This document shows positions 7,017 through 59,760 of a stretch of 64,000 nucleotides of DNA, piece by piece (position 1 is the first letter of the stretch; each line of letters starts with the position of its first letter). Source of the stretch: Cytidiella melzeri (taxonomy: Eukaryota > Basidiomycota > Agaricomycetes > Polyporales > Irpicaceae); the NCBI GenBank assembly GCA_022592445.1, contig JABYQR010000186.1, forward strand, positions 1 through 64,000, in the 5' to 3' direction. The notes under the pieces are model-generated. The model was not told where the DNA came from, searched no databases, and saw nothing but the letters and a program-made list of their open reading frames with translations. The translations under genes and the position numbers were made by a program.

Positions 7017-7037
7017 CTACACCACCAAATTGCTCGG
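7017..7037 (+). repeat. Left terminal inverted repeat of the A/B element
   Basis: Begins CTACACCACCA and has TTGC and CGG further in, matching the right end at 13862-13882 in inverted orientation with three mismatches. Preceded by TGTT. Confidence 0.65.
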
Positions 7038-7233
7038 CTGACCCGTTGATATCCAGCAATGAGATGCGGGGCTGCCAAATAGCAACATACATGGCCATCC
7101 CTCAGAGCGTCAAGCGAGATCGCAGCACTGATCTCTTTGCGCAGTTCACTGGCTCTCCTGGGAGCTCCCGATCGACGTCCTCCGTCACTGACTTCAAGAT
7201 CCATGGACAATATTATTTTCACAGTGGCTTCAG

Positions 7234-10200
7234 TTAAGCTACATCACCCTCGGCCAACCGGCCAACCTTCGACGGACCTGGTGCTGCAGGCAGCGTCATC
7301 GCTGCCTGCTTCTTCTTCTCTCTTGTATTCTTTGCCTTTGCCTGTGTCTCTGCTCTCTTCGCCGGACCGCTGACTTGTAAACCTTCTGCTATCTGCCGGT
7401 GAAATGCTTCCCAATCTGGGACTAAAGCAACAGGCGTTGTCAGGCTGCGCGGAAGGATCGAACGAACCAGATGGGCATTGTGTAGGGCGTGCATATTCAG
7501 TATGTAGCGGCCATCATCGCGATGCACAACTGATTTTACTGATATTTTTGTTCTCAGCCGTTCTTGTATGACAACTTTGTCTGAGTCGGCCAGTTCGCAT
7601 TGCCCGGTTCTGCAATCGTGCTGAGCATTGAAGATGAACTGAATTGACTGTTGAATCGGTGAGCATTGCTGTAAGCAAACATTGGTTACTGTAACTTACC
7701 TTGGGATTTACTGCATAGACTTTTTGCGAGCGGCTTAATATAGGCATGTTGAAATGCTCGTCTCGATGATTGAACACGTCGAAATGTTCAACCAGTACCA
7801 TCGCTTTGTCTGGTGAGTCATTTGCGTCCGCGTGCTGCGCTATTCTGAGAATTCTCCCTGCGTGCGCGTTCTAGGCCGATATCGTGTCAACGGCCTTCAC
7901 GACTGGCGGGAAACAGGTATTCAAGTACCTCATCGAAGTTGAAAAACACCCAAGAGTTCTCCTTACAGATGTCGTGCGACTGCAAAATAACTGCCTTCCC
8001 CTGGATCCAGGGACCTTCGCGCTGTTCGTCTAGTTCAATGCTGGCTCCGGTTACCACCGTGTGAGAGCCAGCCACTTGAAAGAGCTCGCCCCATGTCCAT
8101 GATTGCCGCTTGCGAGCGGGTGCAAGATGTATAATACCTGCTTTATAACATCAGTTTGTGGATGCCATGCTTGTGCAGATCGTACCGGCTTCAACGTTTG
8201 AAGTATCGGCCCAACCCAGCCGACGCTGTAGCTCCGGGCTGCACCGTAAGAATTCTCGGACATTTTTACCGGCGCGAATGTACCCTCCCTTTCCATCTTT
8301 CCACCAGCCGCCACTTACTTGGTGTTTAAAGCGCTCCATGCCCCCCAAGGTTGTAGCAATATCTCGACTGGGTGCCAGGTGATTTGATAGAATGCTACAC
8401 ATCCGGAAGACGGCATTCCAGCATTCAAAGACCTCGGTTGAATACAGAATTGCGGGGCCGAAGCGACGTATGTCGTCAACCAGATGTGTGAGGATATGCA
8501 GCTTAGCCCTTGTAATTATACGCCGCGGGTCAAACATCGCCCATGCGTCGAGTAGGTTGCCAATCAAAATGTCGAGGTCAGTCTATATTGAGGTGAGCAG
8601 TTTGTCAAATCACTATGAAGGCAGATTACGGTACACACAAGATATTGTTCCATATCCGCAATTTCCGGGATCCAGAGATGCGCCCCAAGTTCCCCGGTAG
8701 CCTTCCATACATCGAAGATTGTGTCAGTGCATAAGTCCGAAAGATGAAAGACGGCTAGTTGTTGAAGGCATTTGAAGTGCTTCCCAATGAGGGAATTCTT
8801 GTATTGCACCAAATACTTTGCTCTGGGCGGGGCGATGCTCAGTCCGTCGATGTCAGTTGCCTGTAGACGAACAGCAAATAATTCCTCCTTCTTCTTATCC
8901 CACGGACTGCTGGTTTCATGCCAGACATATTTGTCGTTTCCGAGCAGGAATGAGTGAAGGATTTCGACGGCCGTGTCATGGTGTGGGTCGATTCCTGGGA
9001 TCATGTTGTCAGCAGGCGTCGGACAAATAAATCACTTGTGGAACAGACGAGCACCTCAACGACTCAACAGTATGTTGTAGTGGAATCCTGGAATCAAATC
9101 CCTGGGCCGCTGGCCGCTGTCTGCCTCCGGGGGCAAATCAACGAACCAATTCCAGAGTGAGTCCTGGATTGTGTCTATGACCTCAAGCCTGACTGCCTTT
9201 CGAGCATCGCCTTTAAGTCCCTTATCGTTCAGCCGTGAATCCCGAGTTGGAGGGTCTTTCAGTAGATGATCCTGTTGTTCACGGGCCGAGGCAAGAAGAT
9301 GCTCAACCCAAAACTGTGCAAGCTTGTCTTTGACGCCTGTCCGCGTCTGGATGCTCTGTACTGCATCCTTGTTACCCCGGCATGCGACTCGAAGCTGTTC
9401 ACGAATTACACATGCTGTATCGTCCGCATTGCGGGGAGTTCCGGGCTAGAAATCATCCAGTGCGCTTATGAGCATTCGCTCCTGAAACTGTGCCACCGAG
9501 TTATGGCGTACTTACATGGTACAAGGCCTCGTACCCTTCGTCAGTCTCTTTTTCAGCATCCGCCCCTCTGACTGTATCACGACGGCAGTTCCGGTTGCCT
9601 TTGACCCCAATGTGTGAACAATCCTCTGATTGTTGCGGGTTGTCTGCAGGAAGAAGATGTTCGGTGATTTGAAAGATGACATCCTGCCCCAGTTGGCAAT
9701 CATACGCATCATGCCAGGCATCATCAGTACTGCAAGTTGCATGCACACTAGATCAGCAAGCAAGTGTTGTCGTCTGGTGGTTGTCACTTACAAATCACTT
9801 GATACGCCAGCCAGTTGTTCAGACGACGATGCAAAGGTTGAGGTGGATACAAACCGAACGGAAAACTCCTGGGCAAGTTTCTTGTGAGGAATACAGGTGT
9901 TCTGGATGTAGACGTTGGTATGTGCATTGTATTGTTTACTGACATTGCCTGAAACATCGTCGCTCCAGGGCATTGCACGCAATCGAAACATTGGCCGGCC
10001 ATCGGCTTTGATGCGCGGAGGATTTACTGTTTCTGATGTCCATGGAAACAAGGATGACTCTAGCAAGCACATTCTTTCTTGAGCCTGCCAGTGGAGTATG
10101 CACAGAATATACGCATGTAGAAAAGTCACTTTCTGAAACTCATTTTTCAGGTCGAGAATATTTTCACGCAGCTTGCTTGCTCGAACCCGTACCACACTTG

Positions 10201-11696
10201 GGTCTGCAACAGAAAATAGTTTTGCCTTCCAGACGATAATCAGTATCAGAGCAAGTGCAAGGAAGTATTGCAGTTGCTCGCCTGGGAATCATAAGTGACA
10301 GGATAAGCCTCTGTGTATACCTCTCCATTGACGGTAATCCATTTAACAGGCATCACAAAATTCCGGTCATCGACTCTTGCTAATTCTTTGATGAAATAAT
10401 GTCGATGAGGCGCATTCTCCCAGTCGGTCCACATTGGTGAAAGTTCGTCGTAAGAGAGTTCTTCCACCCATTTTTTTCCTTGCCAGAACTCGCTGACTGG
10501 CCCTGCGACTTCAGGATAGATATGCAAGAGTGGTCTCACAAGCGGGTTTGCAAAGTCCTATGGCGAGTTTATTAGCTTGCTCTCTTCAATATTCCTGAAA
10601 GCATATCTACCAGGGCGATCAGCTTTGCAGGGTGGTTGGAAAAGAAATGATTTCCCAGCGACGAGGTATGATGCTCTGGTTGAAATTCGAGATTTTGATT
10701 CATTGCAGCCTGCTTCTTCCGCAGTAGGGCGAACGTCGGTACATCCGGAGTTCCGCACTCTTGCATTACCCATATAATGGCTTTGAGGTGATCGTCAGAT
10801 AATCGTAAGCGCGGCAAATTATCCAGCATATCAAGCATAAACAGCTAAGGTCCTTCACTCAACCTATTGCTCTGTAAACAGTGAACCATGGCAACTTACC
10901 GTCTTCGAATTATGCGGCACCCAGTCATCATTCTGTGGCATATGAAGCTCTTCGATGATGGGATCTTCCCCATCTTCATCATCGATCCCTGCATATCATA
11001 AGTGAAGTAAGTCACTATCTTCCTTCTCTCCAAAAAGTCAACAAATGCTTACCCAGCAGACGGAAGGCAGCTTCTATTTCAGTGAGGTTGGCATCCTCAC
11101 ATTCATCGTCGATACCCAGATCAGTGACCGAAGATGCTGCACAACCAAAGACACCTTGATCCTCGACCAGTCCTAAAAATTTGAGCTCTTGCTCAAGGGC
11201 TTTGCGCCCATCAACCTCATTGTTTCTCAGACTTGGGCCTGCTGAGAAGACAATATCCTCGCCATTCTCATCCAGGAAGTGAGACTCTTCAACTGTCATG
11301 TTATGGAAAGGGTCGTCAAAAGGCGGATTCAATGGAGATTCAGGAAGCCCCATTTCAATATCTGTGTCGAATTGGCCAAACAACTGCAGTGCAACAGGTC
11401 CAGAATTCGCCGAGCTTCCCCTGCCGGCTGAATCGACGCCCGTAGATTGTTGCTGTGCAGCCTGTGTCTCCGCTTCTTTGGCACGTCGGTGTGTAGCCGT
11501 CTTTATATGGGACACTTTTGAGCTTCTTTTCATAACAACATCTTTCGTCAGGGAGTGTTTTGTACAGACTTTGCACCGTATGTAACCTGATTGCTCGGGG
11601 ATTTCATCGAAGTCTGTTGATTGTAATGACACCCGACACAGAGAATAACTAATCTCAATACGGACCTGGCAGTTCTTGTTTCCGCGAAGGAGGCAT
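7234..11696 (-). CDS. Gene A1: large zinc-finger protein, transposase candidate
   Basis: Multi-exon gene read from ATG 11696 (MPPSRKQELP, exon 11696-11666; then 11613-11053; 10988 onward) to TAA at 7236-7234. The N-terminus has a CKVC...H...H zinc motif (BED-like). Later blocks are MLDNLPRLRLSDDHLKAII, DFANPLVRPLLHIYPE, SEFWQGKKWVEEL, DDVSGNVSKQ, EFSVRFVS, AVEILHSFLLGNDKYVW, LIGKHFK, RRFGPAILYSTE and a C-terminal QHDC...LNMHALHNA region. All have counterparts, in the same order, in gene A2 (52.6-57.6 kb). The product is roughly 1,100-1,300 residues; not every intron was resolved. One intron (10281-10226) appears to be GC-AG. No stop codon was seen inside the exons checked. Shares a 205-bp divergent promoter with B1. 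Function unknown; a transposase role is inferred from the flanking inverted repeats. Confidence 0.65.
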
Positions 11697-11901
11697 GTGC
11701 GCTCTGCAATGGTGTGGACTTTGCGCTGCAGAACTGAAGGAACAATGATTCCAGCGTAAATGCACGTGATGAATAACTTAAATGTTCGTTTTCAGGATAC
11801 ATTTTTTGCCCAAGTCCAACCACTTCATTCTTCTTTATCACCCTTTGCTTTCACTCTTTCTTTTTCTCTGCCCGCTTTCTCTTTTCTCTTTCATCTTTAC
11901 C
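11697..11901. promoter_or_regulatory. Shared divergent promoter of A1 and B1
   Basis: Only 205 bp separate the two start codons. The B1 side is pyrimidine-rich (TTTCACTCTTTCTTTTTCTC), a common feature just upstream of fungal start sites. No other motif identified. Confidence 0.45.
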
Positions 11902-13234
11902 ATGGTCCTGGCTGCTCCTCCTTCTATTGATGATCTTCTCAACAGAGCATCAATGTCGCCTTCGCCTCCACCCCCATCCTCTCACCGCAGCAGCTCCCCG
12001 TTGCCAAACCAGGCGCCAAATGATGAGGAGGATTCTTCTGTTGGCTCCGACGGACTCCGAGAGGGTTCTACTACTTCTGCCCCCTCACATTCGCGCAAGC
12101 GTCCTGCAGACGACCTGGAGCAGTTTGCTAAGTCTCATGGCCGCAACGTGAGACTTAAGGGTGATGCGCAAGAGGACTTGCGAAAGTTCTCAGCGGTTTG
12201 TTCATTTTAATTAGACGGGTTTCCCTGCTGACTCTTGCATGCTTGCAGTTGACGTTGGAACAGCAAATGGTCTGGGTCGCAGCTCGATTCCTTGCACAGG
12301 AGACCAAGCTTGACTCCATGCAAGTTGAGTCTGTCTATCAGATACCACCGAAGCTGGACGTATGTGCCAGTGCCCTCCTTCCTCCTTTCAAGTCTCAAAA
12401 TTTTGCCTATGCCAGGATCGCATCGAAACTTACACATTCCTTATGCTCGTAAGCCCAAGCATCTCCGCTTATGTCACCAATGATGGTCCGGTGAAATCAC
12501 TCATTGTAAGGTCTCGGAGTTCATCTTGCAGTTCGGTTCTGCTCACCCTTATGCTCCAGAAACACCTTGAGAAGACTCCGTCTTGGGGACTTACAGCGGA
12601 GGTGCAAAGTAACAAGCACAAGAAGAGAGTAATAACCACGAAGATCCGCTCGCGATTCAGTCACTGACGTAACAATATCAAGAAATTAGTATGTGTTCAA
12701 TTTCCCCGTCGTGCCGGTTCTAATCCCATACAGCTTAGACAATCAGTTTCTGCGCCGGTCATGGATATTGTCGCTCTATGTGAAGCCGTCCTTGCGCTTG
12801 GGGAAAAGGTCTCTACTGCCAAGCCTTCAATACAGTTAGCGGCACGATTCGCCTTCCTTGTGAGTTCATCAGCACGGACTGGATCTTTCTGCATGCAGCT
12901 TGAACTGACACATTGCATGTGTGATTTCAGCACAACGTTTATTGCACCAATATGGACACTCAAACCAAGAAAGTGGGAGACAACTACTGGAACCTCGTTG
13001 ATGCGAAGCTGGAGGAGATCAGAAACACAAAGGGGCCGGACGTGGACAAGATATCTCAGTGCGTAACATCTGACTCCTTGAACTCGTCAATGGTACTCAA
13101 GTTACCCTTTCAACAGAGCCTTTGGTATTATTCTTTGGGAGGATCGGAAGGTGTTTGGGAACATATCCCTCACCGAGCTGCCGGCCACATCGACAGATGC
13201 TTTTGACGGCGACAACGATGACGACGACACATAA
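11902..13234 (+). CDS. Gene B1: accessory protein of the A/B element, with in-frame TGA
   Basis: Seven exons (11902-12195, 12249-12359, 12416-12505, 12560-12688, 12734-12859, 12931-13058, 13117-13234) join in frame to 332 codons. Layout: a Ser/Pro-rich N-terminus (MVLAAPPSIDDLLNRASM), a basic stretch, LTLEQQMVWVAARFLAQETK, FLMLVSPSISAYV, AARFAFL, and DNYWNLVDAKLEEIRNTKG, ending in an acidic tail DGDNDDDDT. The exon-by-exon layout matches gene B2 (57799-59233), including the FAFL exon end and the YWNLVD/FWKYVD motif. TGA at 12665-12667 lies in frame (codon 201) in the segment equivalent to B2 NAMTRHRSDIKAI, so this copy may be dead or have a base error. It belongs to an expanded Agaricomycete family with no known function (possibly the one catalogued as DUF6698, from memory). 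Confidence 0.65.
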
Positions 13235-13861
13235 CAAGTCATCGCTCCTCCATTTTACTCTTCGCATACGGTACATGATCGTGCACGGTATTTGCATGCC
13301 ATTCACTTACCACTCTCATCATTTTAATGCACTATCCTTCCTCCAAACACACTATTAGAACGCACTTAATTCATTTACATTCGCGAGTACCATTACCGAT
13401 GTAATTACGAGTTGTTAATGAAATATTCCCCTGCTGTCGAGCACACCCCGTATATGTCCAACCCACAAAGAACTGTGGTCTATATCAGTGAGATCACAGG
13501 AGGCATTCTGGAAGCTTGACCAAAGGTATAATGAGATCGTTCGGGGATGACAGCGGGCAATCGCACCGAAAACGCTTGGAGGTCGTGACGAATGACAGCG
13601 AGAGGTCGCACAGGATTGAACAGGGAAATCCTGAAGAAGGCTTTGGATGATCGCCCAGGAAGGTAACGACACATCGAGACTGATGGAATGAGGAGGACTG
13701 GTGCGAGAGCCCGAGGCGATCATCGTGCAACATCATAGGATGGGTGCCCTCCCAGAATCTCCAGGAAGCCTATGATCTGAGTGCCAGGGATATCGGACGT
13801 CAAGGCGGTGAGATCTTAGTCATATGATCTGGATATAGAAGCTAGGATCTCACGCCAACCT
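13235..13861. other. Non-coding right end of the A/B element
   Basis: Lies between the B1 stop and the right inverted repeat. Minus-strand open frames at 13415-13736 overlap each other in several frames and show no family. Probably 3' UTR and subterminal transposon DNA. Confidence 0.4.
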
Positions 13862-13882
13862 CCGTGCAAAATGGTGGTGTAG
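13862..13882 (-). repeat. Right terminal inverted repeat of the A/B element
   Basis: Ends TGGTGGTGTAG, the inverted form of the left end. Followed by TGTT at 13883-13886, the same four bases that precede the left repeat. Confidence 0.65.
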
Positions 13883-50337: not shown

Positions 50338-51605
50338 GGCAAACGAGTGTACGCGGTCGGTGAGGGTGGGCAAGCGCTGTTTTGTTTCTGTGAGGGTCAA
50401 CGTGAAGAAGCCGACACTGCGCCGCTCCTCCTCAAGTGTCCTGGGTAGCCTGAAGAAGCAAGGCAACGAGGAGGGCAACAGAGAGCGAGAGAGAGAGAGA
50501 GTTGGAGGGGAGAAAAATTCGAAAAGCGCGAGGATCTGCTCGACTATAAACATGAACATTCGCCTGTACGGCATTCATGGTTCTCACCATTCGGTTATCA
50601 ACTGTGCAACAACTGGTGACCCTGTTTGCAATCTGTTTAAATCTGGGGGATCCCGGCGGATGAACTGCTGAGCGTCCCCATCACGACGTGTAGCCAAAAT
50701 ACAAAGGCGCAGCCATTTGGAGGTCGCGTTTTGCGTTTTGGTTACCGTTTTGCCTGGAAAAAGGTGCACTGAGGGATGGTTTGGACTGCCAGCGACGCCT
50801 GGACTAGCAAGCAAGCTGGAAGACGGAGATGACCTCCATCCTCGTGCTTGTGGTGCACAAACCATTGGCTGTGTTCGTAAAACGCGGTTAGATTCGGTGA
50901 TACTAAGCTATAGAGAAGAACCGACGTCGCACAGGTTCAAGTTTGACTTCGGAAATATCGGTAGCCAACGTTAGATGCGGATGTAGTATGTATGTACGAA
51001 CTTGTCGAGGTACAACGTCCAGAGTGACAGAGACTAACTGCAACGGTTTTCGTAAGCGCAGTAGATTCAGACTGACACCCGTGTACGATATGTCGCCGTG
51101 CCGCATATATATACTCAGCGAGCCTATCGCCGCTGCTGGCAACGCTAAATGTCGCGGAGAACTGCAGAATGATGCAGATTCAAATGAGCGTTGATACTAC
51201 ACTCCCAAGCGAATGCGATGTCGGGCGGATATGAGCGCGGGGTATGTCGTCGCGGCGACGAAAGGAGGGAATGTGGCGGTCTGAGGGATGGGCGTGCAAC
51301 GAAAAAAATAAATATCACTGAGATGGGTGTGAAACGTCGCTCCGACAACCAGCCCATCATATAATCTGTCTATAGCCAGTTTATCTAGACCAGCAATAAT
51401 GGACATCCAGCGTACATAATTATCAGGATATGCACAGTTCAACTATCTGACCACCATATTATGTGTGATTGAACATGCACAGTGCGAGCAGAAGCCGCGA
51501 GAGACTCGGGCAATAGACATATTGATCTCACTTTGCTTGAGCTGGGATGGACAGCGCGGAACGAACAAATGACATATTCAAAACAACAACAACGTGTAGA
51601 TACAG
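50338..51605. other. Intergenic region
   Basis: 1.27 kb with no convincing gene. Contains an AG/GA simple repeat at about 50483-50502. Open frames on both strands are short and unrelated to known families. Confidence 0.45.
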
Positions 51606-52361
51606 CTAATTTAAAGTACAGTCATACAACGCGAGCTGCCCCTGTAGTTCCGTCCAAATATCCCTGCGAATCTCCTCGCGCGTACGTGTAGCTACAGTTT
51701 CAGGTAGGAGTTTCTGTGCTGGGCCAGGGGCACGCTTCGGCTTGAAGCGCGCCATCCAGGAGTCGAGGAAACTGCCTTCGAAAGGAATGCTGGTGTTCCA
51801 ATCAGGCCAGTTGGAGCCAGCAGGAAACTCGGGATAGGTGCCGACGAACGCCATCCAGTACAGCGAAACACCCCACGACCACTGGGGATGTGTCCGGTCC
51901 AAGACGGTCGTGAGGAGCCAACGCTCGACGCCGTTGAGGAGCGATTCCCAGGATGCGAACGACTCGCAGTTGAAATGCTTGAGGGTGGTTGCGAACGTAA
52001 GCGGGTAGTCGGTCTCCTGTGCTGAACGTGTGAGGTACATGTCGCTCGACGCAAAGTGCGATGTACTTACTGGTGGGAGGGTGACCGCAAAGTCATAATC
52101 CGCCTCTTCGCCTTTCACCTTTGCGGGGCGCACTGTCGCCGTGAGGAAAGCAGCAGCCTCAGGAGGCACTGCAACTGTTACTGTGAGGGGCTGTGAGAAT
52201 GTCAGTGATTGAGCAAAGCGTGAGTATCGCAGAGGGCTTACCACAGAGTCCAATGCGCGCGATAAGCCGTGGATTTCGATCCACAAGGGAACACGGCGGA
52301 AGTCGTCAGCCCCTTCGCCGTGTTGGGGCGGTCCAGCATTGACCATGAGAACGGTCGCCAT
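51606..52361 (-). CDS. Unknown 216-residue protein
   Basis: Exons 52361-52242, 52190-52071 and 52016-51606 give 216 residues. Start MATVLMVNAGPPQHGEGADD; then VPLWIEIHGLSRALDSVPLT, VTVAVPPEAAAFLTATVRPA, TDYPLTFATTLKHFNCESFA, WSWGVSLYWMAFVGTYPEFP and a charged C-terminal half with TREEIRRDIWTELQGQLALY. The second intron (52070-52017) is 54 bp, in frame and stop-free, so a longer form retaining it is possible. No family recognised; no signal peptide or membrane segment. Confidence 0.6.
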   Translation of the reverse strand: MATVLMVNAGPPQHGEGADDFRRVPLWIEIHGLSRALDSVVSPLRYSRFAQSLTFSQPLTVTVAVPPEAAAFLTATVRPAKVKGEEADYDFAVTLPPVSTSHFASSDMYLTRSAQETDYPLTFATTLKHFNCESFASWESLLNGVERWLLTTVLDRTHPQWSWGVSLYWMAFVGTYPEFPAGSNWPDWNTSIPFEGSFLDSWMARFKPKRAPGPAQKLLPETVATRTREEIRRDIWTELQGQLALYDCTLN

Positions 52362-52638
52362 GGTCGAGGAGGAGGAGAGTGGGAGATGTGGAGAGGGCTG
52401 GCAACGCTGAGCAAAACGTTGACAGAGGGGAGAAAGCCAACGCCAAGGGAGTTCGCACGGTCACGTGCGCTTCTCCGTCGATCTCAAACGCATCGATGGG
52501 CTCGTACAGTCCTCTCCTTTCTCTACGACGTGTGCACGAAGCTTGAGACACATTGCAAAAGGTGAGTAAAACAGTCTTGTATTGCACAATCTGACCCAAC
52601 TTACGTTGTGATTGTGCTACCTTTGCTCATCAGTCAGC

Positions 52639-55600
52639 ATGTCCGCAAATACTCCAGCTTATGGCTTAGACCCTACAGGTGCGTACTTGAGATTGGCTCT
52701 GTTTCTCTACACACGTCAATAATTTCTACACAGTGTGGTCTATAGGCCCCAAGGACCAAGTGACGTGCTTATTGTGTCCGAGCCCCACAAATGGTCTTCC
52801 ACTCACAATGGCACGCCGCTACGCTCAGGGCCATGAATCTACAGCCCGGCATCAGCAGCGCCTCCAGTACCGTCAGCAGCTACAAGAGGCCAACATGGAG
52901 CGCGCGAAGCTGCAAGATACAGAACTACAGAGGCAAGAAATGCAAGGAATTGAGGAGTCTTCAGACACATTCCAGGAGGAAGAGCACCTGGTGGACACGT
53001 CTCAAGATCCAGTCCCATTCGGTGAGCTCTGGCAACCCCAAAGTCGTGAGCACAGTGTTGGCGTGTTAGAGGTGAATGAGGAGGAGGGGGAGGGGGAGGA
53101 GGAGGAGGAGGAGGAGGAATTTGCTGCTGATAGTGCTGAGCGCGATGAGACATTGGATGCGGACTATGAGCTGTTTGAGGATGATTTGCAAGATGAGCAC
53201 GTAGGCAGCGCTATTGAGCAGGATACCATAGGAGAAGATGAGCCGTCCTATCTAGGTATGAGGTATTACATGATGAAAATGTCCTGCTGACAATTCATCA
53301 TAGGCATACCAGCGTTTTCACACTCAAGTCAGCCATCTGCTCAGGATTCATCGTTCTTTCCATGGCCGTCCAAGTCAGTAAGTATGAGTGAGATCCTACG
53401 GTCAGATAGCTACTAATTTCCATCAGCTCTTTCTCACAGACCTCTTGTTAACATCTCCGCGTCTGCGGTTCTCGGATGCACAAATCAGTGCAATGCTTAG
53501 ATGGGCCAAGGCATTACACGCACGTGACGTTCCGACCTTGTACGCTATCAAGAAAATGCGCCAGGACCTCCGTCGTCTGGTTGGAGATCCCACAAAGAAG
53601 GTTGTAAGTCCTAGTGGCAATATCTTCTACATCAATGATATTGGGGCTGCGGTTGCAAAGGTACGGATTGTATATCTTGTAATCAAATCTCAATCTGAAC
53701 CTGTTTTAGGATTACGCAAATCCTTTGACTCGATTTGCAATGTCCGACTTTCCTGAAGACCGTGGAGGATATATGTCTGAAGCACAGCATGGTTTCAAGA
53801 TGCTTCGCGATGGCCCTGAAGGCATTGTCACGCCTGCTGTAAGGGTTGAAGGAAAGATCTTTTTCACTCAGGAGCTGCTTCAGCGATCCGACACGTCCTA
53901 TTTTATACCGGAGCGGTTCTTTGTGGATTGTTGTAGTTCACGACGAGACCCAATCCCAACTGCTGGAGGCACACCAGAGACACTTACAGCATTAGGCCGT
54001 AGCGTTTCTTGGACTGAGGTAAGGTACATCTTCAATTGGATGTATTTTTGCTCACTGGTTGATTAAATATAGCGTGGTTTTGTTGTGAGCAACCGACAGA
54101 TGCTATGTCCTGTGGCTACCTTCAAGGTTCCCTTTGACAACTTGTATGGGTCATATCCTGAACATGTCCAGCTGTTCTCTGGTATGTCTCAATAAACCCA
54201 CTTAGTGACTTTCTCACTTAACTTAATTTGCACAGATGAGTCTCGGAAATACGCCGAAAAAATGCCAAATCCCATTCGACAACTTGCCAAGGGCAGGATG
54301 TGCTACGCTGTCCCAGTCATTGTGTTCATCGATGATGTTTCTGGCAATGTTTCAAAGCAGTGGAACAAGCATCATGTTGTCTACGCCTCTAACGCAAACT
54401 TGCCACGGGAGATGATAGAAAAGGAATTCTCGGTCAAGTTTGTCTCATCGTCACCACATGCGTCTCCAATAGAGCTTGCAAAGGCTGTCTGTGACTCCAT
54501 AAAGTAAGTACAGTCCTGAATTCTGCTGCAGAAAAATTATACTGGTACTTTTTACTTACTTCTCAAATAGTTCAGCAGCCCAGAATGGTGTTGAGGCCTG
54601 GGACTGCAAGTATGACGAAGAGGTTTTGTTGCTTCCATATGGCTTTTTTTTTGGTGGCGACAATCCCATGCAAGCAGAGGAATGCAGTCACAACGGGCTT
54701 GGTTGTAATCTCTTTTGCCGAACTTGCAAAGTTGGTGGTACCAAGGCTCATAAAGCCTCAGAAGAAGGCTTTCTTGAGTTATTCTCTGTATGTTTCTTTC
54801 TCTCTATTTTCTTTTCAAGAGTCAAGGTTGGGAACCTGATTTTTTGTGCTACTGTAGGAAGGCCCACTTCGAACACCACATGAAACAGACGCAGAAATTC
54901 GAAGACAGCTCAGCATGTCTGTTCTCCCTGGAGCTCAGAGCAAGGTTGACAGCGCACGTCAGGCCACTGGTGTTTGGGACTCAGGACTTCACAGCATCAT
55001 TCATACCTTGATTGAGATGGGTAAACAGCTTCGGAAGGCACGGCCAGACAATTCCCAGGCATCTGAGGATGCAATACGAAAGCAGCTTGAGACAGAGCTA
55101 GATCGCCTACTTCAGCCACATTCCGTGGATGACTGGATTAACCCATTGCTTGGACTAGCCGGTCAGTTTCCACAATATTCATGTTACCATTGATCTCATA
55201 TATCATTCAAGGAGTTAACATTCACATGGATACACCTACTGAGATACTACACACAGTGCTGCTAGGTGTTGTCAAGTACTTCTGGGGCCAGACTGTTCAT
55301 ATCATCGAAAAAGCAAAGTCGCTTGCTTTACTTGAAGCACGAATGGAGTCACTCGCGGTGCATGGCCTCAATCTCCCTGCGTTTGTTCCAGCATACATCT
55401 GCCATTACCGTGGGGGTCTTATTGGAAAGCATTTCAAGAGCCTTGCTCAAGTAATGCCATTCCTCATTCATGACCTAGTTCCTCAGGATGTACTTGATGG
55501 ATGGAATGTGATTGGAGAACTGGTTGTTCTTCTCTGGCATACAAGTATTGAGGACCGAGAAGTATACTTGGCATGTTTCATTTTATTTTATGGTGTTGCA

Positions 55601-57623
55601 CTATCTCATTGCTGCTGTAGGCCCATCTATCTAGGACCATTCAAGACCTTCTCAATATCACTGCAAAATGTGCACCGAGCATTCTCATCACCAAGCCAAA
55701 ATTCCACTTCCTAGTCCATCTTCCAGCATACATCCGCCGTTTTGGCCCTGCCATTCTCTTTTCGACAGAACGCTATGAGAGCTTCAACCACGTATTCCGG
55801 CTTTCATGCATCCACAGCAATCGGCAATCACCCAGTCACGACTCCTGTAAGACCTTTGCTGCACAGGACGCTGTCAAGCATGTGGCCCTTGGTGGATTCT
55901 GGTATGATGCCGAGAAGAAGACTTGGAGATCTGCAGGTCATGGAGTCCGGGACTACATGAGGGATCATCCAGAAGAGAAAGCACACCTGGGTTATAAAGA
56001 AACCAAGCCTGTTATTTCTGGTATGATTCTGAAGATGCTACACTATCTCTGTGACTATACTGATAATTATGCTAGGATCTGCACACCTACCCAAGTCACA
56101 GCAGAGACATTCGATGTCTGTTACATGGGCACAAACATACTCCTCAACAGTCACTAGCAGCTCACCCTCAGCTCAACTTGCTGCCCATGGACTGGACACA
56201 CGACGCTACTTCAAGGTTGAGTCTATGACTCTCATCAACGGCGATAAAGCTGTCACTGGGAAAGATATTCTTGTTAAGTATGGTGATAATCAGGTGAGCT
56301 ATCTTAGTTTTGGTAAATGTTTCACTATTATTGAATCTTCTCCTGCTCTTAGTACAAGTTTGCACGTGTTATTGAGATGCTGGTGCCACTGGAAAATGTC
56401 TCCCAAGTTTCTCACATCTCTGTTCAGCTGTTCAAGATAGAGGACACACGACATGAGAAGCTTCGAGTCCCTCGACTGACCTTGACACAAGACACTGCCC
56501 TTCTCACACTCCAGGTATGTTGAACTCAATTGTACAGCTGTATGTGCTCAGTCAGGGATTATTGCAGGACATCATATGTGCAGTCAATACCCAGCACAAT
56601 TGCACAGACTCGGACTCCCAATGCATAGGAGTGACATTGCATCCTACTCGGCAAGAACGCACCTTCACAGAGCATCGTACCAAGCAAATTGCTCAGCATG
56701 CAGAGACACCTCACTTCTTACTCAATATCTACTCAATTCACAACTACGAGCAGATTGCTAAAGCTCTTCCTTCATCGCTACGACGGGCTGAGCCAGTTAT
56801 CCCTGACACAGCAGTTTTAGAAGTGCGGAAAGCAGCTGTGAAGCACATGGGAGCTCGAAAAGCTGCATCAAAAGCTGCACTTCCACCTTCCAGCACCACA
56901 AGGATCACAACACCGATCACTCCAGCCGCGTTCAATGTGTCCAACGTCGTGACACAGCCTTTACCAGGTACCTACACTCCTTTTGCCTCTCAAGAGAGTG
57001 AAGCAAACAGGGGTAAGTGCCAGTGCGTAAGGGTACACCCATACACACACTAATAATTGTTTTCATGACATGCAGATAGCAGGGTTGTGACTGCACGACC
57101 ATTTGAAACACCCCAACGGAGCTCATCCAAACGAGGTGCAAAGCGCAAGGTAACAGAAATGGATGTGAGTTCCAGATCCTGCAATTATAGTGCATGCTCT
57201 CATTTTCTGTGGGCAGAAGCAAGCAGGCGGAGGTTTTCAAGCTAATCCAATCGCTTCCAGCTCTCAATCTCAACATCATGAGAGCTATACTGGTGCTGCA
57301 TATGCTGATTCACAGTGGCAGCGTTCACTTTCTTGGCCAGCAGCACAGCCAGGTCCTCACATCTCTGAGTCCGGGGAATTACCCACTTCCCACCTGCATT
57401 CATGCCCCCATCCCAATCTACATTCTCCTTTCCTCACCCAACACACACCATAAACACGCAAACACCATTTCCGCTGCCGCACCCGTCACACACCATTCAA
57501 GACATACCAATCAACCAGCAAACACACCCTTCAGGGCCTCCGGAGCCTCAATCCTTCAATCGCTTCTCGCGCTGGACCCATGCATCGCCGTTTGGGCCCA
57601 ATAACGATAACAATAATATGTAA
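52639..57623 (+). CDS. Gene A2: large zinc-finger protein, homologue of A1
   Basis: Multi-exon gene starting MSANTPAYGLDPT (exon 52639-52678) then 52734 onward. Blocks in order: a zinc motif VTCLLCPSP...GHESTARHQQ, a Glu-rich linker (EEEGEGEEEEEEEEF), LTSPRLRFSDAQISAMLRW, DYANPLTRFAMSDFPEDRGG, DDVSGNVSKQWNKHHVVYAS, EFSVKFVSSSP, a Cys/His cluster ECSHNGLGCNLFCRTCKVGG, DTPTEILHTVLLGVVKYFWG, GGLIGKHFKSLAQVMPFLIH, YIRRFGPAILFSTERYESFN, and NTQHNCTDSDSQC...HFLLNIYSIHNYEQI. The C-terminal 150 residues are low-complexity (Ser/Pro/His). About 1,250-1,300 residues; introns are short GT-AG and no internal stop was seen. Each block has its counterpart in A1. The EILH-LLG region and long Cys/His clusters recall CACTA-like transposases, but that is inference. 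No terminal inverted repeats were found around this copy. Confidence 0.7.
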
Positions 57624-57798
57624 TAATGTATTGTAGTTTAGAAATAGAGGCTCATGTTCACTTGTGTCTCTCGCAATCTCATTTCCTGTGGCCTCATTGT
57701 TGACCAAACAAAGGTAAACATTGGTGCGCTTATATCGATTTGAGCGCTTGCCATGTTTCTCCAGGTCGCGCTGGTTGCTCGTCGCTCAACGCCCTTCG

Positions 57799-59233
57799 AT
57801 GAGTGTCTTCGACGACCTCTTCTGTGCTAACGAGCACCTGTCGCTCAATACCACCGCGGCCTCAAGCCTGTCTTTCCCTCCCCCGTCTCTAAGTTATCAT
57901 CCTGCCAGCACTAGCGAGACGGACGATGGACTCGACCACGTTCCACACCTTTCTCGATCGGATGGCACCGAATCCACCTCCTCGATCAGCACTGGCCCTT
58001 TCCCCGTTGGCTCTATCCGTCGTCGCCGCCGTGACAGCTCCCCCGATATGGGACCCGAACGCAAGAAGCAGGCGTTGTTGTTCGCGCGCAGCAGATGCTT
58101 AGAGTACCAACTCGAGGAGACCGCAGCTGACTATTTCAGCCAGGTAAGTGCTCACCTGTCGTGATACCATATTGCTTACCCATTCGCATCACAGCTCGAT
58201 GCTGACCAGAGGAGCATTGAGACTTACATCCTTGTCAAGGCCCACTTCTTGTCGAAGACCACGGAAACGCTGCAGTCCAAGTCCTACAAGGTGCGTATCG
58301 CTCACCATTGCGCACCAACTGACCAATTCTCAAGCACCTGCAGGCGCACGTTCAAGATCAGGTTTTGGTGGTGATGGTGACTCCGAATATCCCGGCCTAC
58401 CTCAAGAACGCGGTCGATATTGTCATGGTGAGTCGCGCGATATGCTACATACGCTGGCACTGACCACATTCTAGAACTTCATCAAAGAGTCCCCCGAGTG
58501 GTTCAAGCTCGACCGTGCAACCCTGCACTCCATGGAGAAATGGAGGATCATTCGGACGACCGTCAGCAACGCGATGACCCGCCATCGTTCGGACATCAAA
58601 GCCATCGTAAGTTCACTCATTTGCTCTTCGACGCGCGCAATTTGGCACACACTGATCATTACTATCACACTACAGATCGCAGCCTCGCTCGTCTCGAGCA
58701 CGGACAAACTCAAGCCCCGCACAGGGGCTCAGGACATTATCGCCATGGTCAACGAGATCGCGCCGGAGTACATCAATACCGACTGCTCTCACTACACTCG
58801 CTTCGCCTTCCTTGTAAGTGTCACATCAGTACACTCCCTATTGCGCTAACCCCAACCTTCAGCGTCAGTGTTACCTCAAGCATCGCCAAGTTCAAGCCAA
58901 CGCCACCGAAGGCACAAGCACCGCCGATGCACGCGCCAAAAAGGACGACAGCTTCTGGAAGTATGTCGACGACGAACTCCAGAAGGCAACCGTCCAGACC
59001 AAGGCGAAGTCGACTTCCGATGCCCAGGCCGCGGCGCTGCTCAAGGAGTGAGTTCGCCCTGACTCTCGGGTAGTGCACTGGCATACTAACACCGCCTCAG
59101 GTACTTCGACCTGTGTCTCAAGGCTGACCTCCGCTTGTTCACCATCCGCGACGGAGCTCTTCCCTCTGGCCCTGCTGATCTTCTGCCAATTCAGCGCGCC
59201 GTCAGCAACTTCATGGCGTCTGTCGTGGTCTGA
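57799..59233 (+). CDS. Gene B2: homologue of B1
   Basis: Seven exons (57799-58143, 58195-58290, 58344-58427, 58475-58606, 58676-58813, 58863-59047, 59101-59233) give 370 residues without a stop. Layout as in B1: a Ser-rich N-terminus (MSVFDDLFCANEHLSLNTTA), a basic patch IRRRRRDSSPDMGPERKKQA, ARSRCLEYQLEETAADYFSQ, VLVVMVTPNIPAYLKNAVDI, EWFKLDRATLHSMEKWRIIR, CSHYTRFAFL, DDSFWKYVDDELQKATVQTK and LFTIRDGALPSGPADLLPIQ. It starts about 175 bp after the end of A2 on the same strand, so the pair is in tandem, unlike the divergent A1/B1 pair. No catalytic motif visible. Function unknown. Confidence 0.75.
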
Positions 59234-59760
59234 TCGCGGTCGGCTTGTTCTTCGTTCTTGTTTGTGTTCGTTTCCGCCTGCGCTATACTCTCGCTTCCTC
59301 GCTCTCGTGTACTGTCGTTTCGTCCATTGTCGCAGATAGCATAATCGCATTCATTTCTAATATATCGTGTCGGTGCGACGGTGTGACAAAAAATATATTC
59401 TAATGCATACTGTCGGTGCGACGGTCTGGAAACCAAAACCACTCTACAACTGGTGCACACCGCGAGCACCAAGGCTGGACATTCGCTACAACTGTATTCA
59501 TCTTGTCGTCACACTGTCTACCGGTCCTACAGAGCAAGTGTAGGCACGATCTGACTAGGACATCGGTGTGCTATCCCGAGGAGTATGTCGACAGGATCAA
59601 ATATTGTTTTGTCGGAGTGATGCTCGCGCGGGACATATCGGCGCGACGTGATGAAACGCTGTACAGTACATACACACCAAAACATACTCCAGCACCCAGG
59701 CTTCGCCTGGGCGTGTACAATTGCAAAGGAACCCATCTCTGCTGAGCGTAACTCATTCTC
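59234..59760. other. Intergenic region with a short direct repeat
   Basis: Follows the B2 stop. TGTCGGTGCGACGGT occurs at 59368-59382 and again at 59411-59425, 43 bp apart. Looser relatives (TCGGCGCGACG) appear near 59638. No gene seen. Confidence 0.5.

What the first reader, a model, noticed from the sequence alone, without database searches (positions are those of the whole stretch)
7017..13882. A two-gene DNA transposon candidate: divergent A1 and B1 between inverted repeats
Seen: ends beginning CTACACCACCA, identical at 18 of 21 positions in inverted orientation, exactly bracket two divergent genes with nothing else of note inside. TGTT lies outside both ends, and the flanking CTATTGTT-rich DNA is continuous if the element is removed. 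Known: BED-like zinc fingers are common at the N-terminus of transposases. Inferred: A is the transposase and B an accessory factor. I know of no described superfamily with this pair.
Basis: partly seen in the sequence, partly recalled or inferred. Interest (0 to 1): 0.88.

Follow-up and report, generated by a model that had tools for sequence, protein, structure and literature searches.

The report
Mushroom transposon with RAG1-like transposase
This is a real two-gene jumping DNA element of a wood-decay mushroom whose main protein is predicted to fold like RAG1, the enzyme that cuts antibody genes in vertebrates, and it belongs to a large family of mushroom proteins that the protein-family database searched here does not name.

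Summary
The element is a DNA transposon of Cytidiella melzeri, proper limits 7020-13879; one other whole copy and two cut by contig ends exist. The target duplication is not TGTT but TA: single-TA empty sites were found for 5 of 11 insertions in 4 families, so the ends are CAC...GTG. All 12 two-ended elements examined (five families) carry A and B between the ends, eight divergent, four in tandem. A matches no Pfam family, but its AlphaFold model (pLDDT 82) matches RAG1: Foldseek rows 1-33 are all RAG1, though with large overall rmsd. Invariant D212 and E639 and near-invariant D297 are placed as in a DDE transposase; ExxExxNxxFR repeats RAG1 around E962. A also has a C-terminal BAH-like domain, by fold only. 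A therefore sits near Kojima's CMCT clade (CACTA/Mirage/Chapaev/Transib/RAG), most like 'ESTA' (TA duplications, RAG1-like) of rust fungi; ESTA membership could not be tested. B accompanies A in all six families seen but has no recognisable domain; its accessory role is inferred. The window copy carries CpG-type mutations and a stop in B.

The parts
7018..7019 (.). left TA target-site duplication
   Evidence: single TA at paralogous empty sites C172 and C62
7020..7037 (+). left terminal inverted repeat, begins CACCACCA
   Evidence: same end in C401, C283, C476
7020..13879 (.). element proper, 6860 bp
   Evidence: limits from the copies and the empty sites
7234..11632 (-). gene A: predicted RAG1-fold DDE transposase with N-terminal CCHH (BED-like) finger and C-terminal BAH-like domain; 12 coding exons in the hand model; true start codon not settled
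   Evidence: (P0001 = BC835DRAFT_1284746)
11902..13233 (+). gene B: conserved second protein, 7 exons in the hand model; in-frame stop at 12665-12667 in this copy
   Evidence: (P0121 = BC835DRAFT_1419177)
13862..13879 (-). right terminal inverted repeat, ends TGGTGGTG
13880..13881 (.). right TA target-site duplication
51197..59717 (.). second, distant member of the same element kind in the window (family F2; the first C is target), ends TACACTCCC...GGGCGTGTA, genes A and B in tandem on plus, extra gene C 51606-52361 on minus

Best explanation
A cut-and-paste DNA transposon of the CMCT/RAG kind. Shown: the element is bounded by CAC...GTG ends, duplicates the target TA (preferred target C-TA-G), and carries genes A and B. 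Well supported by prediction and conservation: A is a DDE transposase with the RAG1 fold (D212, D297, E639). Inferred: A, probably as a dimer and helped by B, pairs the two ends, cuts next to CAC/GTG and joins the 3' ends 2 bp apart across TA, after which repair makes the TA duplication. Inferred from fold only: a C-terminal BAH-like domain of A reads chromatin and may bias where or when the element acts. B is a co-inherited partner of unknown fold; I think it most likely an end-binding or regulatory partner of A.
For: Copies with the same ends. In families F3 and F4 TACAC...GTGTA lies within 0 to 5 bases of the limits of homology between copies. Empty sites with one TA for 5 of 11 insertions in 4 families. 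C before or G after TA in 17 of 22 positions (P 3e-7 against 0.2465; background next to TA in the window 0.21). A and B inside 12 of 12 two-ended elements; 12 of 17 weak B matches lie next to A matches. Fold. Conservation of the catalytic residues; RAG1 letters checked. KLHxxxH-x16-E spacing in 32 of 33 A homologues (loose pattern) and 2 of 3 Plavaka frames.
Against: No sequence search links A to a known transposase: no Pfam match, no PDB sequence match. In the Foldseek rows for RAG1 the overall rmsd is 10-24 and TM 0.19-0.27 by query length, so the agreement is by parts; the residue-by-residue superposition of the catalytic residues on RAG1 was not seen. Profile comparison with Plavaka is weak (score 30.0, 0 of 60 shuffles reach it) and with Transposase_21 not better than chance (21 of 60 shuffles reach it). 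The second cysteine of the C(2)C motif is D in the window's A and in 21 of 33 homologues in all. BAH has no sequence support. No movement was observed. B was found only in this species.
Confidence: 0.87

Rival explanations
1. A new superfamily unrelated to CMCT/RAG that merely happens to insert at TA (as Tc1/mariner does).
For: No sequence match of A to Pfam or PDB families; TA duplication.
Against: Foldseek rows 1-33 are all RAG1 with probability 1.00; VIA-align adds a RAG1-like protein and HzTransib; CAC...GTG ends; H(3)H and ExxExxNxxFR spacing.
Confidence: 0.07
2. The element is an Agaricomycete branch of the already named ESTA lineage (EnSpm-like with TA duplications, RAG1-like transposase), so only its host range and gene B are new.
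For: TA duplication and RAG1 similarity are the two features given for ESTA in PMC12730594; both met here.
Confidence: 0.45
3. A and B are two host genes that chance inverted repeats happen to flank; no transposon.
For: The 18/21 TIR alone is no rarer than in shuffled sequence.
Against: Same limits in copies, empty sites, and A+B within 12 of 12 two-ended elements of five families.
Confidence: 0.01
4. B is not part of the machinery but a passenger such as an anti-silencing or regulatory protein.
For: No domain found; B evolves fast (21-30% identity to the first row); gene order relative to A differs between families.
Against: Present in 12 of 12 two-ended elements, across A proteins only 43% identical in the exon compared.
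Confidence: 0.35

Closest known systems
[quoted passage not shown]
   Same: TA duplication; transposase similar to RAG1; basidiomycete hosts
   Different: The three families of the text are from rust fungi and carry a TET/JBP gene (others without it are said to be in its Data S1, not seen); BAH-like domain and gene B not mentioned in what I read; sequence relation untested
Plavaka (PF18759)
   Same: KLHxxxH-x16-E block; weak profile match; many copies in the same genome
   Different: A does not match PF18759; Plavaka ends are TGT..ACA or CATCA..TGATG (PMC12730594)
EnSpm/CACTA (Transposase_21, PF02992)
   Same: CAC..GTG ends, DDE
   Different: 3-bp duplication there, 2 bp here; no PF02992 match
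RAG1/RAG-like (RAGL) and Transib transposons
   Same: RAG1 fold by prediction, ExxExxNxxFR at the catalytic E, ends beginning CAC (recalled for RAG), second gene beside the transposase gene (RAGL)
   Different: TA instead of 5-bp duplication (5 bp recalled); genes divergent or tandem, whereas RAGL genes are convergent (abstract of PMC7204232 in a search listing); B shows no Pfam domain

Membership tests
CMCT clade (PMC12730594) | DDE catalytic residues in an RNase H-like core | tested here: met
   D212 33/33, D297 30/33, E639 33/33; predicted RAG1 fold; superposition of the three residues not seen
CMCT clade (PMC12730594) | C(2)C between second D and E | tested here: inconclusive
   C316 in 31/33; residue 319 C in 11/33, D in 21/33 including the window's A; CRTC in family F2 (alignment)
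CMCT clade (PMC12730594) | H(3-4)H between second D and E | tested here: met
   H615 30/33, H619 30/33; spacing block in 32/33
CMCT clade (PMC12730594) | 5'-CA..TG-3' ends and TSD of 2 to 5 bp | tested here: met
   CAC..GTG, TA
CMCT clade (PMC12730594) | placement in the clade's transposase tree | not tested
   no aligned set of CMCT transposases at hand
ESTA | TA duplication | tested here: met
ESTA | transposase similar to RAG1 | tested here: met
   by fold only; no PDB match by sequence
ESTA | clusters with ESTA transposases | not testable with these tools
   ESTA sequences are in supplements, which could not be opened here
Plavaka | PF18759 match | tested here: not met
Plavaka | ends TGT..ACA or CATCA..TGATG | tested here: not met
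EnSpm/CACTA | 3-bp duplication | tested here: not met
EnSpm/CACTA | PF02992 match | tested here: not met
RAG/RAGL | RAG1-type catalytic core | tested here: met
   by predicted fold and motif
RAG/RAGL | convergent RAG2-like partner gene and 5-bp duplication (the latter recalled) | tested here: not met
   A/B divergent or tandem; TA duplication
BAH domain | BAH fold | tested here: met
   [not shown]
BAH domain | sequence match to BAH | tested here: not met
Tc1/mariner | mariner-type transposase | tested here: inconclusive
   no Pfam match, and none among the listed fold matches, which does not exclude it

The most novel reading that the evidence does not exclude
A widespread, unnamed mushroom transposon lineage in which a RAG1-fold transposase carries its own BAH chromatin reader and works with an obligate second protein B, an independent parallel to the RAG1/RAG2 pair that would steer integration or activity by histone marks.
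Probability: 0.3. Interest if true: 0.82.

Novelty: new variant of a known kind. Interest (0 to 1): 0.66.

Why it matters
428 database proteins match A at E 0.001 or better; the 120 listed are mushroom proteins, almost all called hypothetical or uncharacterized and one a transposase, and they are now candidates for RAG1-fold transposases. Ends, duplication, target preference and gene partner are defined, so the family can be annotated. If the BAH-like domain reads histone marks, it is a transposase with a built-in chromatin sensor and a partner protein, which bears on how two-protein recombinases such as RAG1/RAG2 arise.

Tried and rejected
TGTT as target duplication: rejected, since C401 lacks it and the empty sites show TA. 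Zero duplication with TACAC ends: rejected, since leaving TA out raises mismatches from 8-13 to 107-125 in 301-302. Coding frame across the C730 junction as support for TA (written in my notebook): withdrawn, since a frame stays open with one TA and also with none. Plavaka and Transposase_21 as the family: no Pfam match of A. CTACACCACCA as a high-copy end: no enrichment. RAG1 or BAH by sequence: nothing. B by profile search: only Cytidiella proteins (which scored only 7,999 candidates). tblastn of A against plasmids: no match. An automatic exon finder gave poor gene models and was replaced by hand models. An alignment with C401 in the wrong orientation was discarded and redone. Of 17 loci fetched with long flanks, behind 78 exon matches of A, 12 have both ends; C17, C126 and C26 show a left end but no right end in the stretch fetched, C283 and C476 end with their contigs. 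The structure of B could not be predicted: the machine was busy at all 7 attempts.
Full report
Observation. The arms 7017-7037 and 13862-13882 match at 18 of 21 positions. Between them lie gene A on the minus strand and gene B on the plus strand, both rich in introns. The arms alone prove nothing: 3 of 6 Markov shuffles contained an equally good pair, and the first 11 letters are not enriched in the genome (56 sites, 60 for the reversed control). The host is Cytidiella melzeri, from the names of the proteins that match A and B; the assembly has 49.7 Mb in 731 contigs.

Copies and limits. A second complete copy, C401:13048-19911, is 99% identical and starts and stops at the same letters. C283 (96-97%, in two pieces around a foreign insert of about 440 bp) and C476 (99%) start at the same end and run off their contigs. 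The flanks of the copies are unrelated, and TGTT is absent from C401. One search lists 78 matches of one A exon in the genome. I fetched 17 of these loci with long flanks and found TACAC...GTGTA at both ends of 12: C97 and C401 (family F1), the window's second element, C101, C85 and C50 (F2), C233 and C292 (F3), C223, C176 and C239 (F4), C730 (F5). The other five lack one end: C283 and C476 by contig end, C17 and C126 (F6) and C26 because no right end was seen in the stretch fetched. For F3 and F4 the ends lie within 0 to 5 bases of where the homology between copies stops; for C730 they rest on the motif alone.

Target duplication. I joined 150 bases of each flank across one TA for 11 insertions (C50 was not among them) and searched the genome. 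Repeats that contain the same site without the element were found for C97, C176 and C239 (letters checked: 8 to 13 mismatches in 301-302 with one TA, 107 to 125 with two or none) and for C85 and C292 (letters checked). That is 5 of 11 insertions, in 4 families, each with a single TA. The searches scored only 40 candidates each and one part of the second query was mistyped, so the other six are untested rather than negative. The element is therefore CAC...GTG, 7020-13879, with TA duplicated. The base before TA is C in 10 of 11 and the base after is G in 7 of 11; at the empty sites of C97, C176, C239 and C85 the C is native to the target. A coding-frame argument at C730 did not discriminate.

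Gene content. tblastn of A and B proteins into the 12 two-ended elements finds both genes inside all 12; eight are divergent (F1, F3, F4, F5) and four are in tandem (F2) (the B queries include proteins spliced from some of these same elements, so this shows location and completeness rather than independent discovery). A less circular measure is, counted by eye: of 17 B matches outside family F1 at E up to 1 (three of them below 0.002, the rest 0.008 to 0.22), 12 have an A match within 6 kb in divergent orientation, three more lie 12 to 14 kb from one in the same arrangement, one is not so arranged (C361) and one contig has no listed A match (C666). Family F2 carries a third gene, C (window 51606-52361, minus), found in its copies C101, C26, C50 and C85 and in no other locus over 8 kb that I held, nor in the first 51 kb of the window.

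What B is. B has seven exons in my model and matches no Pfam family and no PDB sequence. The database B of the window and five hand-spliced B proteins of families F2-F6 align at 21 to 30% identity to the first, with 25 invariant columns. Database searches found B only in this species, but they need shared 5-residue words and B diverges fast, so absence elsewhere is not shown. Its role is inferred from co-inheritance.

State of the window copy. In columns where C97, C401 and C283 all have letters, 45 changes are specific to C97, of which 36 are C to T or G to A and 28 of those 36 at CpG. B has an in-frame stop at 12665-12667 that C401 and C283 lack. This is the pattern expected of methylated DNA, and this copy is probably no longer autonomous. 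The start codon of A was not settled.

Comparison with the known. I read parts 1-4 of 7 and searched passages of Kojima 2025 (PMC12730594). It defines the CMCT clade by D, D, E with C(2)C and H(3-4)H, CA..TG ends in most cases and 2-5 bp duplications, and names ESTA for rust-fungus elements with TA duplications and RAG1-like transposases. The present elements meet the ends, duplication, D/D/E and H(3)H, and only partly C(2)C. They are not Plavaka (other ends, no PF18759) nor typical EnSpm (3-bp duplication). ESTA is the closest description; its sequences could not be opened here. Profile comparison of A with Plavaka frames gave score 30.0, above all 60 shuffles (maximum 27.5); with Transposase_21 frames it was within chance (21 of 60); Plavaka against Transposase_21, accepted relatives, scored no better. 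Searches of the open-access library listed no paper whose title or shown abstract describes this pair; passages of two Marasmius oreades papers mention Plavaka, and one a CMC family, without such a pair. Repbase and subscription papers were not searched, so the family may exist there as an unnamed EnSpm or CMC entry.

Verdict. The novelty lies in the lineage, the constant partner B and the possible BAH reader, not in a new chemistry.

Noticed in passing
window 51197-59717: Second member of the same element kind, 8.5 kb, with A and B in tandem and an extra 251-aa gene C (51606-52361, minus) without Pfam match; 99.9% identical to a copy at C101, so probably recently mobile.
   Followed up: partly
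window 59690-59717: The right end of the second element holds a near-terminal palindrome CCCAGGC-TTC-GCCTGGG, not seen in the terminal bases printed for the other families.
   Followed up: no
L014 1762-2200 (C283:38282-38720): About 440-bp foreign insert in one copy of the element, with a 4-base overlap at its ends that looks like a target duplication of another element.
   Followed up: no
L057 1266-8391 (C730): The flanks of this insertion read as an open frame through the junction with one TA and also with none, so the insertion may break a gene, but it does not help to fix the duplication.
   Followed up: yes
window 7020-13879: Excess of C to T changes at CpG in this copy, as expected for cytosine methylation and deamination.
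   Followed up: yes
flanks of C97, C176, C239, C85, C292: Five insertions sit inside other multi-copy repeats of the genome.
   Followed up: partly
[not shown]
   Followed up: no
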